From the NCBI RefSeq assembly GCF_001426345.1, contig NZ_LMEM01000009.1:326540-390539 (forward strand): a stretch of DNA of 64,000 nt, given 5' to 3'. Shown here in pieces: positions 15,529 to 53,980 of this stretch. The DNA comes from Devosia sp. Root436 (lineage in GTDB: Bacteria > Pseudomonadota > Alphaproteobacteria > Rhizobiales > Devosiaceae). The position numbers were made by a program, and so were the translations under genes. The stretch's first letter is position 1. Each line of letters opens with the position of its first letter. Under the pieces are notes generated by a model. The model was not told where the DNA came from. It made no database searches and saw only the letters and a list, made by a program, of their open reading frames with translations.

Positions 15529-15708
15529 AATTTTTTGTCGCAGTGCCTGTTCAGCCCCTTCTGGAAGGCCGATTCCGGACTGACAATCCATTGAATCAAA
15601 AGCGCTATTTTCGCCGCAACAAACTGCGCATAGCGTGATCACGCTTTCGGGAACGAAAACAAAAAGCCTGCGTTTCTTTGCCATACGGTGAAACAAAGGA
15701 GCGAACTC

Positions 15709-16110
15709 ATGGCTATCCCTGAACGCGATACCGTTTATACCAACGACGGCAACCGGACGGTCTATACCCGCGAAAGCAGCGGTACCGGCTGGTTCGTCGG
15801 CATCATCGTCGCCCTGGCCCTCCTGGCCATCGGCTACCTGGTGTTCTCCGCCAATTCGGGCCCGTCAACCACGGTTGACGTGAACGGCGCCCCCATGACG
15901 ACCGAAGCCCCGGCCGATCCGGCTCTGGCTCCGGCTCCGATGACGGAAGCCCCCGCGGCTCCCGCGACTGACGCCGCCCCGATGACCGAGGCTCCGGCCG
16001 CTCCGGCGACTGATGCGGCCCCTGCGACTGACGCGGCTCCCGCTACGGAAGCCCCTGCTGTCGAGGCTCCGGCCACCGACGCTGCTCCGGCTGCCGAGCC
16101 TGCCGTCTAA
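15709..16110 (+). CDS. Small single-pass membrane protein with Ala/Pro/Thr-rich tail
   Basis: A 133-residue protein of unrecognised family. Residues 1-27 are polar, residues 28-48 form one transmembrane helix (WFVGIIVALALLAIGYLVF), and the rest is a repeated low-complexity tail built from units such as TEAPAAPATDAAP. The topology is probably a cytoplasmic N-terminus and an extracytoplasmic tail. RBS AAAGGAG precedes ATG 15709, and a strong terminator follows. The tail composition recalls the linker regions of the OmpA-family protein two genes upstream. Its function is unknown. Confidence 0.75.
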   Translation: MAIPERDTVYTNDGNRTVYTRESSGTGWFVGIIVALALLAIGYLVFSANSGPSTTVDVNGAPMTTEAPADPALAPAPMTEAPAAPATDAAPMTEAPAAPATDAAPATDAAPATEAPAVEAPATDAAPAAEPAV

Positions 16111-17000: not shown

Positions 17001-17070
17001 TTACATCCCTGTGCGTTCTTGATCGCATCTGCCGGTCGAGCCATCTGTGACCCAACCAGGAGTCACCCAG

Positions 17071-18126
17071 ATGGAACTCGGACTTTATTCGTTCGCCGAA
17101 AACACCCCCGATCCGCTCAACGGCAACGCGCTGCAAGGCCCAGCCGAGCGGCTCAATGACCTGCTCGAGGAAATCGAGCTGGCCGACCAGCTCGGCCTGG
17201 CCTTCTATGGCCTGGGCGAACACCACCGGCCCGACTTCGTCGCCTCGGCGCCCGTGACCATACTCGCCGCTGCCGCCGCCCGCACGAAATCGATCCGCCT
17301 TTCCACGGCCGTTACCGTGCTGAGCTCGGAAGACCCGATCCGCGTTTGGCAGCAATTCTCGACCCTCGACCTGCTGAGCCATGGTCGCGCTGAAATCATG
17401 GCGGGCCGTGGCTCCTTCGTCGAAAGCTTTCCGCTCTTCGGGCTGGACCTCAACGACTATGACAGCCTCTTCGAGGAAAAGCTCGAACTGCTGCTCAAGA
17501 TTCGTGAAGGCGGCAAGGTCGCCTGGCCGGGCAGCGCCCACACCGGGCCCATCCCCGGCATCGAGATTTACCCCAAGCCGGTGCAGGACCCGCTGCCCAT
17601 CTGGATAGCCGTAGGCGGCACGCCCAATTCGGTGGCCCGCGCCGCCTATTACGGCCTGCCCCTGATGATCGCCATCATCGGCGGCCAGCCGCAGCAATTT
17701 GCGCCGCTAGTGCAGTTCTATCGCGACACGGCGGAAAAGGTGGGCCGCGATCCGCAAGCGCTGCCGGTCGGCATTTCTTCACACGGCTTCATCGCCGCCG
17801 ACAGCCAGGATGCGCGCGACATCGCCTTTCCCGCTCACAGCGCCGCCATGAGCCGCATCGGCAAGGAACGCGGCTGGCCGCCCACCACGCGCGCGCAGTT
17901 CGACGCTGGCGCCACCCCGCAAGGCGCCTATTTCATGGGATCGCCGCAGGAGGTCATCGACAAGATCCTGATGCAGCACGAATGGTTCAGGCACGACCGC
18001 TTCGGCCTGCAACTGAGCGTCGGCACCCTGCCCCACGACAAGGTCATGAAGGCCATCGAGCTTTATGGAACGGTGGTGAAGCCGGCGGTGGACAAGGCGC
18101 TGAGCATTACTTTCCCGAACGCTTGA
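17071..18126 (+). CDS. LLM-class flavin-dependent oxidoreductase
   Basis: A 351-residue TIM-barrel protein of the luciferase-like monooxygenase family. The start ([15 protein letters not shown]), the [15 protein letters not shown] segment near residue 48 and the flavin-side strand [20 protein letters not shown] fit the subgroup that includes N5,N10-methylenetetrahydromethanopterin reductase-like and alkanal monooxygenase-like enzymes. It needs reduced FMN or F420; the substrate is unknown. ATG 17071 is preceded by CCAGGAG; a GTG at 17047 is possible but lacks a site. Its end overlaps the convergent small gene by 20 bp. Confidence 0.85.
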
Positions 18127-18328
18127 TCGTCTTGATCGCCAGCGGCGGCAGGCCGGACTTTTCCGAAATGGCGCGATCCTGCTCCATGATGGCTTCGCGG
18201 GCCGGTTCGTCGCCATCGAGCCCCCCGAGCAGGCTCGCATCCACCTTGCGATTGGAACGCTGGCTGCCGTCCTCATAGATTATGTCGAACATCACGAATT
18301 CACTGCGTGCCGTGGGTTTCTTTGCCAT
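18107..18328 (-). CDS. Small conserved-looking hypothetical protein
   Basis: A 73-residue charged soluble protein ([20 protein letters not shown] at the start) of no family I can name. It has a good ribosome binding site (AGGAGAG) before ATG 18328 and is the last gene of the minus-strand series that begins with dnaG. Its 3' end overlaps the convergent LLM gene by 20 bp. The residues upstream in the open frame look non-coding. Confidence 0.7.
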
Positions 18329-18410: not shown

Positions 18411-18704
18411 CTAGCGGAAGATGCCTTCGCCCTGCTCGTCGATGATCTGCCGCCCCTTGGCAAGCGCCAGGGCAACCAGGTCGTCGCGTGAACTCATGCG
18501 GTCGGCGCGAATGAAGCGGTAGGTCTTGAGCGCGCCGCCAACATCTTTCTCGATCGTCCCGGCCAGTTGCAGCTCGCTGCCGGCCTTCATCTCGATCGCC
18601 TTGATGAGGAAGCCCTTGTAGGCCTCCTCGCCCAGCGCCTTGTCGCCTACCGGCTCGGCACTCGACGAACCGCCACCACCGAACAAATTCTTCCAGAACG
18701 ACAT
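18411..18704 (-). CDS. HlyU-family protein
   Basis: A 97-residue protein of the HlyU family (PF10115). It begins MSFWKNLFGGGGSSS and has the typical GFLIKAIEMKAGSELQLAG and TYRFIRADRMSSRDDLV segments. The family name comes from a Vibrio haemolysin regulator, but that HlyU is an ArsR-type protein and not clearly the same; the role here is unknown. It lies 12 bp downstream of the DUF2442 gene, probably in one transcript. Confidence 0.8.
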   Translation of the reverse strand: MSFWKNLFGGGGSSSAEPVGDKALGEEAYKGFLIKAIEMKAGSELQLAGTIEKDVGGALKTYRFIRADRMSSRDDLVALALAKGRQIIDEQGEGIFR

Positions 18705-18716
18705 GGCCCGGTCTCC

Positions 18717-19067
18717 CTAGTTTTGTCCCGTTCCGCGCAGGCGGCGGACCGGCAGCGGCAATTGCAGTTCGCCGCGTTTTTCCATTTCCTCGCGCAGCCA
18801 ATCCGGCGAGATGTCGAAGTGGTTCGGCCAGGTCGGCACGCCATTCTTCAATTCGACCGTGCCAAAGAACCGCCGATCCCGCAACGGCTCCGTACCCTCG
18901 CCCCGCTCCCCGATCATGCCAGCGGCATCGAACGTGCCGGACGATCCATCGGAAAACGTCACCACCAACCTGAACGGCACGATGGCGCGGATGGCGGTGA
19001 GCTTGAGGCGGGAAGCAATTCGTCCGGTTATTTGCCCACTCCCGCCTTGGACAGAACCTCCCGCCAC
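18717..19067 (-). CDS. DUF2442 domain protein
   Basis: About 116 residues, with a DUF2442-like core: VVTFSDGSSGTFDAAGM, then EPLRDRRFFGTVEL and WPNHFDISPDWL. DUF2442 proteins are small and often accompany toxin-antitoxin or regulatory genes, but no function is proven. There is no ATG in the frame before the domain. GTG 19067 or TTG 19070 would start it inside the end of the LRR gene, overlapping by about 40 bp. The start is therefore uncertain. Confidence 0.65.
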   Translation of the reverse strand: MAGGSVQGGSGQITGRIASRLKLTAIRAIVPFRLVVTFSDGSSGTFDAAGMIGERGEGTEPLRDRRFFGTVELKNGVPTWPNHFDISPDWLREEMEKRGELQLPLPVRRLRGTGQN

Positions 19068-20176
19068 CAATTTGCAAGCAAAAGCAGTATGGAGGCAAAA
19101 ACGGCGATCCCAAAGAGCCAGGTATTATTGCTGTCCCAGGCTGCCTTCATGACAAAGCCCATCCCGCCTATCAGGGCCGGAATGGCAACGGCTGCTGCCG
19201 CGCTCAGCATCAACCGTTGATTTTCCTGGGTCGCGACAAAACTGGCTCCCAACAAATCGCGCCAGCCATGCTGCCAGCTGTAGGACCATCCCGTCATGGC
19301 CTTCAAAGCCTCTTCGGTCACTTGGCCATCACCCTGCGAAGCTATACGGGCGATCATCCGGTCGCCAACCTTGTCGTTGACTTGCAGGCCCAGAAATTCT
19401 GGGCTTGCCTTGGCAAATTCCTCCAAGCGATTTCCTTTGGCCACCGGCCCGAGCGACCGAAGCGCTGGCGTATCTCCGGCGTCAATGCCCGCTAACTGGC
19501 TGGCGTGTCTAATGCCATCAATGGAGCGTAACGACGAGCATTTCGACACGCCTACGAACATGATCTGGTCGGCACCAGAGAGAAAGTCGAGATTGCTCAA
19601 ATTGGTTTCCGTGGCCTTGAACACGCGCAGCTTGGTGAGATTTCGCAGCGGAGCCATGTCCGGCAACTGCGAACAATACGAGAGATCGAGATATTCGAGA
19701 TTGGTCAGCTTCGCTATTGCCTGGACTGCCTCGTCGTCCAAGCTTCCATTGCTGAGGTCGAGAAAACGAAGACTGCGCATGCCGGCAACGGTGCGGGCAA
19801 TATTAGGTCGCGACCGCTTGGACATGGCTAGGTAGGATAAGCTGAGCACATTGATGCTCTCTTCAACTACTCCATCGCAGCCCGATATATCGAGAATATC
19901 GAGCGACCGCAGGCTGGCCAGCTCCGAAAGGCCCTCAGTGAGTTGCGGATTCTGGCTGATCTTCAACTCGACCAGCTTCGGAAATTTATCGATCCCTACG
20001 ATAGAGTGGAGCATGCAGCGTCGCGCACTGATACGACGCAGCGTCGGCCGCAGCTTCTGCATGGCCCCGGTTGGCAGCGTGTCCAGCCCGAGGCCGGTTA
20101 GACGTAGCACTGCACCACCTGTCCTTACGGCCTCCGCAATACGTGACGCGACTTGCTCGGTAAGTTCGGCGTTCAT
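19028..20176 (-). CDS. Leucine-rich-repeat protein with C-terminal membrane anchor
   Basis: A 382-residue protein. Residues about 30-250 hold 8-9 irregular leucine-rich repeats (LVELKISQNPQLTEGL, LDILDISGCDGV, LRFLDLSNGSLDD, LEYLDLSYCSQLPD and others, each with the LxxLxLxxC/N pattern). Two hydrophobic segments near residues 318-343 and 350-369 should anchor it in the membrane. Its ATGA start overlaps the stop of the DUF89 gene by 4 bp, so the two products are probably made together. Bacterial LRR proteins usually bind other proteins. No catalytic motif is visible, and the partner is presumed, not shown, to be the DUF89 phosphatase. Confidence 0.8.
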   Translation of the reverse strand: MNAELTEQVASRIAEAVRTGGAVLRLTGLGLDTLPTGAMQKLRPTLRRISARRCMLHSIVGIDKFPKLVELKISQNPQLTEGLSELASLRSLDILDISGCDGVVEESINVLSLSYLAMSKRSRPNIARTVAGMRSLRFLDLSNGSLDDEAVQAIAKLTNLEYLDLSYCSQLPDMAPLRNLTKLRVFKATETNLSNLDFLSGADQIMFVGVSKCSSLRSIDGIRHASQLAGIDAGDTPALRSLGPVAKGNRLEEFAKASPEFLGLQVNDKVGDRMIARIASQGDGQVTEEALKAMTGWSYSWQHGWRDLLGASFVATQENQRLMLSAAAAVAIPALIGGMGFVMKAAWDSNNTWLFGIAVFASILLLLANWWREVLSKAGVGK

Positions 20177-21476
20177 CCGAAAACCCTCTGCGCCAGGTAG
20201 GCATACCCCTCTTTGGTCACGTTTCGCCGTCGCGGTAGCAGGTCGCGTAGCTCTTCTAGAGTGCGGGGCAGTGTATAACCCGGTACCCCGATCAAGCATT
20301 CGGACTTAATCGCGCGTAGACAGAAAACCTGCGAGGACCCGACAACGCTGGCTGGCAAAGGCTGTGAAGGGGTCCACAGCCTATCTCCCACCAGCTTGCG
20401 ATAATTCAGGTCACCTTTGATGATGATGACCGAATTGGGCGCGAACAAATCCTGATGCGCGCTCATCTCCGGCAGGTGACCCACTAGCCTGATCGTGGTC
20501 GAAAAATCAAAAGGCATATCAAGAAAGGGCGAGCTACGCACGTTGAACCGTTGGTCGTGTAGCAGCATCGACAGGCTGCCAACGGCGTCATGTGCCTTGG
20601 TCATCACATCTCTGAGAGACAGCCAGTCAGAATAGGTCACATCCGAAACGAAAACAGGCAGGTTCTTGACCCAGACCGTGATCGTCTCAAAATGCCCGGC
20701 ATCGTAGATGGCCTTGCAGAGTACTAGGTCATCCAGAAATTCGAGCGAGAAGTTGTCAGCCACGATGTTGATATGGCGCGGCGCCCCACCCAACAGGATT
20801 GAAACCAAATCGCGGGTGTGGTCAATCACCAGGGGACCCAACGAAACGTCTCCGGTGCCTTGACGGGATCGCGGCGAGACAGTCTGGCTGCTGTCCGTCC
20901 GGTTTTCGTATAGGCACATATCGACCGCGTGCGTGAGCATGGCACGCTTGTCTCGCTTCTCAGCGATCTGTTTCAGTCGTTTCTGGAGATGTCCCCAAGC
21001 CGCCGGCGCCTGCACCGGGCCAACTCGCTTTTCTTCGGAAAACGGATCGAGATCGGTCGGATAGCGCCAAGTCGAGCTGTCCACTTTCTCCAACTGAAAG
21101 AACAGCCCGGTACATTCGAGCACGCGAAGGTAGAAATAATACTCAAGTTCGAGAAAGGGCGCCGACCGCCAGTCGCCGACGCGCCGTGCCAACTCCTCCC
21201 AAATGCCCTTGGGAAAGAAAGGGTTTTGTTCCAGAGCGGAAACATGCCCGCGCGAGCTGAGCGAAAGTTGGAGATCCGACAGACGTGACCAACTCTTGGC
21301 GCCTGCGGCCCCGAGCATGACCCGCTCAATTAGCATCGGCAGGCGATCATCGAGTGTATATTCGGCGAATGGGGAGTTCGAAGGGGTCGCGAAAGGCGAT
21401 ACTGCGCCGGCCTGGAAATCCAGGACAGCCTTTGCAACGTCTGACAGACCAGCGCTACTCCCCCCGTTGACTGCCA

Positions 21477-21477
<1 letters not shown>
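20173..21477 (-). CDS. DUF89/ARMT1-like damage-control phosphatase
   Basis: A 434-residue protein whose C-terminal half matches the DUF89/ARMT1 family of metal-dependent phosphatases. It shows NIVADNFSLEFLDDLVLCKA (D241, N242), VKNLPVFVSDVTYSDW (D279) and IIIKGDLNYRKLVGDRLW (residues 351-368). From memory, the metal ligands of human ARMT1 are D253, N254 and D291, with the same 38-residue spacing. Eukaryotic members hydrolyse sugar phosphates such as fructose-1-phosphate, and a carboxyl methyltransferase activity has been claimed. Residues 1-200 are helical, as in ARMT1. ATG 21477 shares its A with the rpoD stop codon (TGATG), which suggests coupled translation. The substrate is unknown. Confidence 0.85.
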
Positions 21478-23546
<2,069 letters not shown>

Positions 23547-46048: not shown

Positions 46049-49360
<3,312 letters not shown>

Positions 49361-52241: not shown

Positions 52242-53252
52242 TCAGGCGGCGACGTCCCCGCCATCCTGGCCGTCATTGGCGGCGCTCAGGTCCAGCGGCG
52301 GGCGGCGGGCCACGATGAGGATGCCCGATATCGGGGCACCCCGGTCGAACCGCAGCACTGCCATCTCGAACCGAAGCACTTCGAGCCCCGCCACCACCAG
52401 CGCATCCCGCGTGGCATCCACGCCATGGGCGTAGCGCAGCGACGGCCGCAGGAACAGCGGCTCGGGCCCGTCATGGGCTTCGAGGGAAAAGGCGACGAGC
52501 CCGCCCGGACGCAGGGCCGGCGCCAGCGCGGCCAGGACCGGTGGCAGGGCCCCGCAATAGATGAACACGTCGGCGGCGGTGATCAGGTCGGCGTCGGCGC
52601 GGCGGGCAATAAGCGCCGCCACCAGTTCGGCCTTCTGCAGGCTGTCATAGATGCCCTTGCGGGCCGTCTCGGCGATCATGGCCGCCGAGACGTCGATGCC
52701 TTCGAGGAAAGCGGCCTTGGCCCGCAAACGCTGCCCCATGAGCCCGGTGCCGCACCCAAGGTCCAGCGCCCGCGCGAAGCTGTCTATGCCCAGCCGGGCC
52801 ATTTCAGCATTGACCAGGTCGTCGAGCATTTCGGGCACGCGATAGCCAAGCTTGTCCATCAGCGAGCGCTCGAACTGAGGCGCATACTGGTCGAACAGCG
52901 CCTCGACATAGCTCACCGCCGTACCGTCGGCGGCCTGGCTGGCGCCATGCGCGGCGAGCTTGAGGCCGGCGCCGAACACGCCCTCGTCGTCCAGCGCCTC
53001 AAGATGCCGCCAGGCCGAGATGGCGCCCGAAACATCGCCAGCCTTTTCGCAATAGAGACCGAGCATATCCCAGCCCGCCGCCCAGTCGGGAACGATATCG
53101 AGCGCCTGAACCAGCAGGTCGGCGGCGGCGGCATGGTCGCCCCCGTCGGCCAGCATCCTCGCATAGCCGGCACGGCGATCGGCGATGACATCGCCGGAAG
53201 AATGAAACGCCTTGGTCAAGACGAAGTGATCTCTGGAGGTTACCGCGCTCAC
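52242..53252 (-). CDS. TPR-methyltransferase fusion protein
   Basis: About 336 residues. The N-terminal 90 residues hold TPR-like helices ([40 protein letters not shown]), and the rest is a class I SAM methyltransferase with [15 protein letters not shown] (SAM loop), [15 protein letters not shown] and [13 protein letters not shown]. This type is usually annotated as a predicted methyltransferase with TPR repeats; the substrate is unknown. The start is uncertain: GTG 53252 or TTG 53219, no ATG and no clear ribosome binding site. Confidence 0.8.
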
Positions 53253-53748
53253 TGGCCCGGCGCGCGGGGGTTTGACGCAAATCCGGCCGGAAAGCAAGCG
53301 GCACCGCGCGGTGCAAAAACCGGCTGCGACGATAGTGCCGGTTTGCATCAGTGCTTTTTGGAGTATTGTGGCCCTGTCCGGTACGACGCTTTGGCGCCGT
53401 ATCGCGACACGACGCCACCGACACCGAGATGCTTTGCCTGTCTCGCCTGCCGGTTCCGCGTCAGCGCCGGGCTTTTGTAGTCCGGGGCAAATACTTGACG
53501 AAACTACGTTTTGCCCTGGCAGGAAGCACTTTCCCGCCGGGCGATTTGTCATGTGTAAACAGATATTGAACAGCCGTTTTTTTCAGGCTACGCTCCCCCG
53601 ATCGAATATTGCGGCCGACCGATCTGATCCTGCGAATTCCATTCGCCGCCTGCTGACGTCACTTTCCGATATTTCGATATCACTCCGTCCATGGCCAATA
53701 GTGGCCACGGACCGCCTACAGCAGCGACTGCACGAGGGAACGCGCATC
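53253..53748. other. Region upstream of the cold-shock gene
   Basis: About 496 bp without a credible gene, including the promoter side of the methyltransferase gene. The part next to the cold-shock gene is AT-richer than average and may be a long structured 5' leader, as is usual for cspA genes. No specific element was identified. Confidence 0.4.
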
Positions 53749-53958
53749 ATGGCAACTGGCACCGTAAAGTGGTTTAACGGCCAAAAGGGCTACGGCTTCA
53801 TTCAGCCCGACGAAGGCGGGGCGGACGTGTTCGTCCACATCTCCGCCGTTCAGCGTTCGGGCCTGAATGGTCTCGATGAGGGCCAGAAGGTTACCTACGA
53901 GATCGTCAAGGACAAGCGGACCGGCAAGTCGGCCGCCGACAACCTGACTGCCGCCTGA
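53749..53958 (+). CDS. Cold-shock protein, CspA family
   Basis: A 69-residue single OB-fold RNA/DNA chaperone. RNP1 (KGYGFIQ) and RNP2 (VFVHISA) are intact, and it starts [26 protein letters not shown] precedes ATG 53749. It is monocistronic with its own terminator and a long upstream region, consistent with post-transcriptional cold control. Confidence 0.95.
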
Positions 53959-53980
53959 GCCATCAGGCATAACAGACCGA

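What the first reader, a model, noticed from the sequence alone, without database searches (positions are those of the whole stretch)
19028..21480. ARMT1-like DUF89 phosphatase and LRR membrane protein coupled to rpoD
Seen: the DUF89-type gene starts at the stop of rpoD (TGATG), and an LRR protein with two C-terminal membrane helices starts 4 bp inside its end. D241, N242 and D279 plus the KGDLNYRKL segment keep the residue spacing I recall for the ARMT1 metal site (D253, N254, D291). Inference: a membrane-tethered metabolite-repair or protein-modifying unit is expressed with the main sigma factor. ARMT1-type proteins are mostly known from eukaryotes, and a bacterial pair of this kind has, to my knowledge, no assigned function.
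Basis: partly seen in the sequence, partly recalled or inferred. Interest (0 to 1): 0.75.

Follow-up and report, generated by a model that had tools for sequence, protein, structure and literature searches.

The report
Acquired phosphatase–LRR membrane gene pair
Two genes of foreign make-up, one for a metal-dependent phosphatase related to human ARMT1 and one for a membrane-anchored leucine-rich-repeat protein, have been slotted exactly behind the main sigma-factor gene, at a spot where some related species carry toxin–antitoxin gene pairs, so the pair may be an unrecognised defence-type module rather than part of the cell's core machinery.

Summary
20173–21477 (−) encodes a 434-residue ARMT1-like DUF89 protein (PF01937, 8.4e-35) with D241, N242, D279 and the KGDLNYRKL loop; 19028–20176 (−) encodes a 382-residue LRR protein with a C-terminal two-helix membrane hairpin; rpoD–DUF89 overlap by 1 nt, DUF89–LRR by 4 nt. 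The interpretation changes. The pair is no conserved rpoD partner: it is a roughly 2.46-kb insertion of foreign composition (GC3 0.66 against 0.81–0.84 in five flanking genes) where congeners mostly have a 16–21-bp spacer. None of 74 other congeners has it; one, G012, has a 32%-identical DUF89 elsewhere. The same rpoD tail holds other gene-sized inserts in 14 of 55 congeners, 12 of them HicBA or DUF4160–DUF2442 (dhiTA) toxin–antitoxin modules; the next two gaps hold none (0 of 55, 0 of 54). G012's DUF89 is also half of a two-gene insert, with an unrelated membrane protein. ARMT1-like genes are not rare in bacteria (244 matching stretches, 80 seen), but none of those 80 was found beside an LRR gene. 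Best reading: an acquired two-gene accessory cassette, catalytically intact by sequence, probably conflict-type. Function is inferred, not shown.

The parts
21477..23546 (-). rpoD, resident gene; its stop is TGA here, TAG or TAA in 54 of 57 congeners
   Evidence: 3 of 57 counted TGA: L091, L092 and L093; L093 looks like a frame artefact of the script
20173..21477 (-). DUF89 / ARMT1-like metal-dependent phosphatase, 434 aa; predicted nucleophile D241, metal-site N242 and D279, loop KGDLNYRKL 354-362; ATG overlaps the rpoD stop by 1 nt
19028..20176 (-). LRR protein, 382 aa, no N-terminal hydrophobic segment found, two C-terminal membrane helices (about residues 317-349 and 352-377); ATGA overlap with DUF89
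19015..21478 (.). approximate extent of the inserted cassette (about 2.46 kb): rpoD homology stops at 21479-21487 in 28 of 29 congener loci and resumes at 19007-19014 in 23 of the 26 that resume; low GC3
18717..19070 (-). resident DUF2442 gene; the ATG seen in congeners is lost at the insertion, in-frame GTG 19067 or TTG 19070 lie inside the LRR gene
18411..18704 (-). resident HlyU-family gene (PF10115)
18107..18328 (-). resident 73-aa gene, conserved third member downstream

Best explanation
A horizontally acquired two-gene cassette, a DUF89 phosphatase with a complete active site plus a membrane-anchored LRR protein, has been inserted cleanly between rpoD and DUF2442 and is probably expressed by read-through and stop/start coupling from the rpoD operon. 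Shown by sequence: insertion, foreign composition, gene overlap, intact active site, and a site that is a hot spot mostly for toxin-antitoxin modules. Inferred: it is a conflict-type (anti-phage or toxin-antitoxin-like) module. The LRR domain, facing the cytosol, senses a ligand or the DUF89 protein; the membrane hairpin is the growth-arresting or membrane-perturbing effector; the DUF89 enzyme, acting through a metal-bound aspartyl-phosphate, removes a phosphate from a small molecule and so either keeps the membrane partner off or supplies its signal. Constant expression behind the housekeeping sigma gene would suit a guard that must always be present. Which partner would be the toxic one is not known.
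For: Pair absent from 74 of 74 other congeners (G012 has a DUF89 but no P0002 match); empty site (spacer 16-21 bp in 31 of 55); both genes GC3 0.657/0.658 against 0.81-0.84 in rpoD, dnaG, DUF2442, HlyU and the 17047 gene. rpoD-DUF2442 gap holds 416-1928 bp in 14 of 55 congeners, against no gap of 400 bp or more in 55 and 54 at the next two gaps; the 14 are HicBA in 4 (one frameshifted), DUF4160-DUF2442 in 8 (one looks decayed), TetR-PspA in 2. DUF4160/DUF2442 is the experimentally tested dhiTA family (PMC8198452, passages read). The only other DUF89 in the genus (G012) is again half of a two-gene insert, with a small membrane protein found in no other congener. Background by a script's gene calls: of 130 close neighbours of 80 other bacterial DUF89 genes, 24 have a predicted TM helix, 1 has exactly two, 0 are LRR. 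Active site invariant over 31 sequences; fold match to 6umq TM 0.70/0.73. A Kovacikia plasmid DUF89 gene is followed after 16 bp by a YhcG/DUF1016 PDDEXK nuclease gene, one more two-gene neighbourhood with a possible conflict part.
Against: No PADLOC model hit for either protein. None of the 15 papers listed for DUF89 with defence terms holds the word DUF89. Only two DUF89-plus-membrane-gene inserts; the two membrane proteins are unrelated and the SLATT match of the G012 one is weak (SLATT_4 E 0.032, below cut-off; no Pfam hit). The LRR protein has no SLATT or other known effector domain. Hot-spot sharing is guilt by location, and the TetR-PspA inserts at the same place are not toxin-antitoxin modules. 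Characterised DUF89 proteins are metabolite-repair or pyrophosphatase-type enzymes. Two terminator-like matches on the genes' strand lie inside the insert (21121, 19278; whole scan 8 against 5.0 +- 2.5 expected), so read-through to the end is not certain.
Confidence: 0.42

Rival explanations
1. Metabolite damage control: an acquired ARMT1-type phosphatase that hydrolyses a glycating or misformed phosphometabolite such as fructose-1-phosphate, with the LRR protein tethering it to the membrane near a transporter or enzyme that makes the substrate.
For: Complete DUF89 active site and fold. Yeast Ymr027w and human ARMT1 are most active on fructose-1-phosphate (PMC8669784, passage read). At the 80 bacterial DUF89 loci read, no recurrent membrane or LRR partner was found.
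Against: Single-genome distribution, low GC3, insertion at a site that mostly takes toxin-antitoxin modules, and no sugar-phosphate or transport gene in the cassette. I know of no repair phosphatase that needs an LRR membrane partner (recalled).
Confidence: 0.32
2. Passenger DNA: the pair was captured by chance at a permissive site, is transcribed with rpoD and does nothing useful; it will decay like the broken toxin-antitoxin copies at the same site.
For: The pair was found in one genome only; decayed-looking modules occur at the site (L072 with HicA in two frames, L068, a HicB remnant in L053); no relative of the LRR protein beyond generic LRR similarity was found.
Against: Both frames are intact, overlap cleanly and keep the catalytic residues; a second DUF89-plus-membrane-gene insert is present elsewhere in the genus.
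Confidence: 0.16
3. One reading: a conserved membrane-tethered unit functionally tied to sigma-70 expression or activity.
For: TGATG and ATGA overlaps behind rpoD.
Against: No other congener shares it; the site takes unrelated cassettes.
Confidence: 0.05

Closest known systems
ARMT1 / DUF89 damage-control phosphatases (human ARMT1, yeast Ymr027w, fission yeast Duf89 and SPAC806.04c)
   Same: PF01937 domain, fold, Asp-Asn nucleophile/metal site, second metal Asp, KGDLNYRKL loop
   Different: Bacterial, on a very long branch (3.0 changes per column against a median end branch of 0.58), 16-21% identical to the 15 best matching structures, and paired with an LRR membrane gene
dhiTA (DUF4160-DUF2442) and HicBA toxin-antitoxin modules
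   Same: Two-gene inserts at the same rpoD tail in 12 of 55 congeners
   Different: No family in common; the DUF89-LRR insert is about three to six times longer and carries an enzyme and a membrane protein
SLATT-type 2TM pore-forming effectors of nucleotide-centred conflict systems
   Same: A two-helix membrane segment coupled to a soluble partner; [quoted passage not shown]
   Different: The LRR protein has no SLATT match; the G012 partner only a sub-threshold one
KKP kinase-kinase-phosphatase module of Pf prophages
   Same: A phosphatase acting inside an antiphage module (PMC11341870, only the start of the abstract seen in the listing)
   Different: Protein kinases with a phosphatase; no DUF89 or LRR membrane protein (recalled)

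Membership tests
DUF89 / ARMT1-like phosphatase (PF01937) | Profile match above the curated cut-off | tested here: met
   120.9 bits against 25, E 8.4e-35
DUF89 / ARMT1-like phosphatase (PF01937) | Residues equivalent to human D253, N254, D291 | tested here: met
DUF89 / ARMT1-like phosphatase (PF01937) | Fold of the ARMT1 subfamily | tested here: met
   AF2 model pLDDT 80.5, pTM 0.86; the 15 best Foldseek PDB rows are fission-yeast, budding-yeast and 6umq/6umr DUF89 proteins; rank 16 is At2g17340 (a DUF89 protein, recalled), 17-18 a Pyrococcus DUF89 protein
DUF89 / ARMT1-like phosphatase (PF01937) | Metal-dependent phosphatase activity | not testable with these tools
   needs enzyme assay
LRR protein | Several LRR units above cut-off | tested here: met
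   LRR_4 45.9 bits against 27, three stretches
Type II toxin-antitoxin module | Two overlapping genes, horizontally acquired | tested here: met
   ATGA overlap, low GC3, empty site; the genes are larger than typical toxin-antitoxin genes
Type II toxin-antitoxin module | Homology to a known toxin or antitoxin | tested here: not met
   no such family in the Pfam, NCBIfam or PADLOC results
Type II toxin-antitoxin module | One gene toxic, the other neutralising | not testable with these tools
   needs expression test
Known anti-phage defence system | Match to a PADLOC model | tested here: not met
   0 families for both proteins at E up to 1
SLATT effector | SLATT domain in the LRR protein | tested here: not met
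   no SLATT hit for P0002 or its C-terminus; a SLATT_3 match on the DUF89 protein (E 0.06 and 0.17, below cut-off) is taken as chance
SLATT effector | SLATT domain in the G012 partner gene | tested here: inconclusive
   SLATT_4 E 0.032, 14.1 bits against cut-off 55; no Pfam hit

The most novel reading that the evidence does not exclude
ARMT1/DUF89 aspartyl-phosphatases have been recruited in bacteria as the enzymatic half of small, mobile conflict modules whose other half is exchangeable (LRR-hairpin here, a SLATT-like membrane protein in G012, perhaps a YhcG nuclease in Kovacikia): the phosphatase controls its partner through a small phosphorylated molecule, and such modules live in housekeeping-operon tails such as rpoD's so that they are always expressed.
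Probability: 0.28. Interest if true: 0.78.

Novelty: new variant of a known kind. Interest (0 to 1): 0.5.

Why it matters
If the conflict reading is right, it gives the DUF89/ARMT1 family, whose physiological role is still open, a tractable bacterial system with a partner protein and a selectable phenotype, and it adds a phosphatase-LRR-membrane architecture to the catalogue of bacterial immunity parts. Independently, the rpoD tail is a short, precisely bounded insertion hot spot for small modules in this genus, a place to look for further unknown ones.

Tried and rejected
Close relatives by single-sequence scan of genome contigs: none. Plasmids: one distant DUF89 in Kovacikia; phages: none. 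Viral contigs: no DUF89 relative with A1, no P0002 pattern match. P0002 in 150 relatives: three genomes with weak matches, the best-matching frames read in L176-L178 being other LRR proteins without a C-terminal hairpin; the Niveispirillum plasmid match lies just before a COR-domain gene. P0002 C-terminal helices in 200 relatives: four weak hits (E 2.6e-4 to 7.3e-4), in frames that look by eye like solute-binding proteins, rejected as chance. The class-search hit in G142 (E 1.9e-4, 62 residues, three stops in frame) is rejected as chance. P0002 structure: AF2 without relatives pLDDT 47.2, not used for a fold search. The DUF89 tree puts P0001 and G012 together apart from 31 others, but the tool warns of long-branch meeting, so no common origin is claimed. 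Terminal repeats at the insert ends: no convincing pair. Promoter scan 2 found against 1.5 expected, terminators 8 against 5.0, not used as evidence for the reading. The idea that the rpoD link is regulatory was dropped after the congener survey.

Rows dropped before counts: of 60 other congeners, G041 had no match and G037 and G040 only partial matches; 57 were fetched; L066 and L070 end too soon, leaving 55. L093 gave an impossible gap of -300 (its rpoD match ends early); one search gives 24 for it, and it is counted among the short gaps. Of the GC3 yardsticks, the 1154-aa frame (0.59) was left out because it runs opposite what look by eye like real genes. Only the best 80 of 244 matching stretches could be read. 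Genus and host of the window were not identified; I name none.
Full report
Observation. On the minus strand rpoD ends at 21477 with TGA, and the A of that stop is the A of the ATG of a 434-codon gene ending at 20173. Its stop overlaps by four bases the ATG of a 382-codon gene ending at 19028. The first matches PF01937, the ARMT1-like damage-control phosphatase domain (E 8.4e-35, 120.9 bits, cut-off 25); the second matches LRR profiles (LRR_4, E 5.6e-12). A hydropathy script finds two helices at the C-terminus of the LRR protein and none elsewhere, so the LRR part should face the cytosol (inference). An AlphaFold model of the LRR protein alone is poor (pLDDT 47.2) but also shows two long helices at 317-349 and 352-377.

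Is it a complete DUF89 enzyme? By sequence the nearest solved structures are fission-yeast Duf89 (SPCC1393.13, 7t7n, 1.3e-17) and SPAC806.04c, then 6umq (6.1e-11; human ARMT1, recalled). In those alignments D241-N242 fall on a D-N pair and D279 falls on the position that is Ala in 6umr, titled D291A; D241 also falls on the residue that differs, Asp against Asn, between the fission-yeast chains 7t7n and 8tkz. In an alignment with 30 bacterial homologues, chosen at under 70% identity from the 80 loci, D241, N242, D250, S278, D279, K354, G355, D356, N358, Y359, R360, D365, R388 and K391 are among the invariant columns. The AF2 model (pLDDT 80.5, pTM 0.86) has yeast and 6umq/6umr DUF89 structures as its 15 best PDB rows, TM 0.69-0.73 for 6umq/6umr. 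PDB titles of SPAC806.04c covalently bound to BeF3 fit the aspartyl-phosphate mechanism published for fission-yeast Duf89 (recalled; a search for it found no paper in the library). So the enzyme is very probably active (inference). Yeast Ymr027w and human ARMT1 prefer fructose-1-phosphate (PMC8669784, passage read); fission-yeast Duf89 is called a phosphatase-pyrophosphatase (PMC11253589, passages read).

Distribution. ARMT1-like genes are common in some bacteria: a pattern scan of the GTDB species genomes confirmed 244 stretches; the best 80, all that could be read, are mostly Streptomyces, Kitasatospora and Nocardia, with four Chloroflexota, one cyanobacterium, one Nitrosomonas, one Spirochaetales, one Bacteroidetes MAG, one unclassified MAG and some other actinobacteria. 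In the window's own surroundings they are very rare. PF01937 is above cut-off in 2 of 75 genomes of the genus, the window's own and G012; the window protein finds only those two among 101 relatives, only itself plus one chance hit among 385 genomes of the class, and the profile A1 finds only itself among 398 of the phylum. These sets are samples and overlap partly. Whole P0002 has no orthologue among 150 relatives; three have weak LRR matches.

The pair is an insertion. In congeners rpoD is typically followed by a DUF2442 gene, then HlyU, then a 73-residue protein, with an rpoD-DUF2442 spacer of 16-21 bp in 31 of 55. In 28 of 29 congener loci rpoD homology with the window stops at 21479-21487 (21469 in one), and in 23 of the 26 where it resumes it does so at 19007-19014 (18845-18981 in three; three loci do not resume), so the insert is essentially the two genes. 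rpoD's stop is TGA here, TAG or TAA in 54 of 57 congeners, and the DUF2442 gene has lost the ATG seen in congeners, its in-frame starts now lying inside the LRR gene (GTG 19067, TTG 19070). Both inserted genes have GC3 of 0.657 and 0.658; rpoD, dnaG, DUF2442, HlyU and the gene at 17047 have 0.81-0.84. Together this points to lateral gain. There is no room between rpoD and DUF89 for a terminator, so read-through from rpoD is likely; two terminator-like matches on that strand lie inside the insert, in a scan whose total (8) is not far above chance (5.0 +- 2.5).

The site is a hot spot. Of 60 other congeners, 57 were fetched and 55 show both sides of the rpoD-DUF2442 gap. In 41 of 55 the gap is 150 bp or less, in 14 it is 416-1928 bp; the next two gaps, DUF2442-HlyU and HlyU-third gene, never reach 400 bp (0 of 55, 0 of 54). 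The inserts are HicB plus HicA in four (L038, L040, L045, L072; in L072 HicA lies in two frames), DUF4160 plus a second DUF2442 in eight (L051, L052, L053, L068, L071, L081, L090, L091; partial and off-frame in L068), and TetR with PspA in two (L050, L054). L053 also holds a HicB remnant behind its DUF4160-DUF2442 pair, as if modules had been added in turn. Pfam supports HicA in L038, L040 and L045, HicB-like in L045 and L072, DUF4160 in L051, L052, L053, L071, L081, L090 and L091, the second DUF2442 in the same seven, PspA in L050, and TetR in L050 and L054; the rest rests on tblastn or likeness. The resident DUF2442 is about 50-55% identical to the module's DUF2442 of L071 in most congeners, so it may itself descend from such a module. 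DUF4160/DUF2442 is the dhiTA family: growth inhibition by DhiT in E. coli and Dickeya, and promoter control in E. coli, are reported (PMC8198452, passages read); a Thermus plasmid pair was hypothesised to be a toxin-antitoxin system (PMC12724237, passage read). The DUF89-LRR pair is thus a fourth kind of cassette at a site that mostly takes toxin-antitoxin modules.

A second DUF89 cassette. G012's DUF89 (32% identical in alignment A1) lies elsewhere, before greA, and is divergent from a 212-residue membrane protein whose start it meets. Of 15 greA loci compared (14 congeners, one of the same order), four (L191, L197, L198, L201) match G012 on both sides, with 34, 275, 742 and 241 bp where G012 has 1.7-2.0 kb; the other 11 match on the greA side only, so the upstream neighbour varies. 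The membrane gene occurs in none of the other 74 congeners, and the only other DUF89 is the window's. GC3 is 0.584 (DUF89) and 0.667 (membrane gene) against 0.73-0.84 in four neighbours. The membrane protein has a sub-threshold SLATT_4 match (E 0.032), no Pfam match, and two or three predicted helices depending on the threshold. So both DUF89 genes of this genus sit in two-gene inserts whose other half is a membrane protein, but different ones. As background, among 130 genes that a script called within 400 bp of the other 80 bacterial DUF89 genes, 24 have a predicted membrane helix, one has exactly two, none matches an LRR motif, and tblastn finds neither partner protein in those loci. Two events are few, so this is suggestive only. 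The Kovacikia plasmid DUF89 gene is followed after 16 bp by a YhcG/DUF1016 PDDEXK nuclease gene (PF06250 3.3e-65); such nucleases are often met in conflict contexts (recalled).

Mechanism. I commit to a conflict-type cassette at 0.42. Shown by sequence: two overlapping foreign genes, complete catalytic site, membrane-anchored LRR partner, a site that mostly takes toxin-antitoxin modules. Inferred: that the LRR-hairpin protein is sensor and effector and the phosphatase its control or signal maker. The main rival is acquired metabolite repair (0.32), then passenger DNA (0.16). Against my reading: no PADLOC match, no paper with DUF89 in the listing, the pair in one genome only, no effector domain in the LRR protein, and location evidence that the TetR-PspA inserts dilute.

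Novelty. The enzyme is a divergent member of a known family; the DUF89-LRR-membrane pairing was found in no other genome searched here. Searches of the held library combining DUF89 with defence terms, ARMT1, DUF89, bacteria and LRR, or rpoD with toxin-antitoxin and hotspot listed nothing whose title or abstract start describes it; the listings were capped and subscription papers are not covered. I rate it a new variant of a known kind.

Noticed in passing
L038-L094 (rpoD tails of 57 congeners): The gap between rpoD and DUF2442 is an insertion hot spot: 14 of 55 congeners carry HicBA, DUF4160-DUF2442 or TetR-PspA there; no gene-sized insert in the next two gaps.
   Followed up: yes
L037 8567-10253 (G012): A second DUF89 gene, divergent from a 212-aa membrane protein with a weak SLATT_4 match, forms a separate two-gene insert before greA.
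   Followed up: partly
L006 5929-8206: Kovacikia minuta plasmid pA carries a DUF89 gene (PF01937 E 6.3e-71) followed after 16 bp by a YhcG/DUF1016 PDDEXK nuclease gene (PF06250 E 3.3e-65).
   Followed up: partly
window 46147-49323, 52246-53222, 53581-53966: The window also holds the stretch that borders G012's DUF89 insert (a large gene that looks like carB, a methyltransferase-like gene, a cold-shock-type gene; names by eye); homology ends at 53966.
   Followed up: partly
L053 about 1046-1195, L068, L072: Remnants at the rpoD tail: a HicB fragment behind a DUF4160-DUF2442 pair (L053), an off-frame second DUF2442 (L068), HicA split over two frames (L072).
   Followed up: no
window 15688-16110: Short + strand frame with one apparent membrane segment and a long Ala/Pro/Thr/Glu-rich repeat tail.
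   Followed up: no
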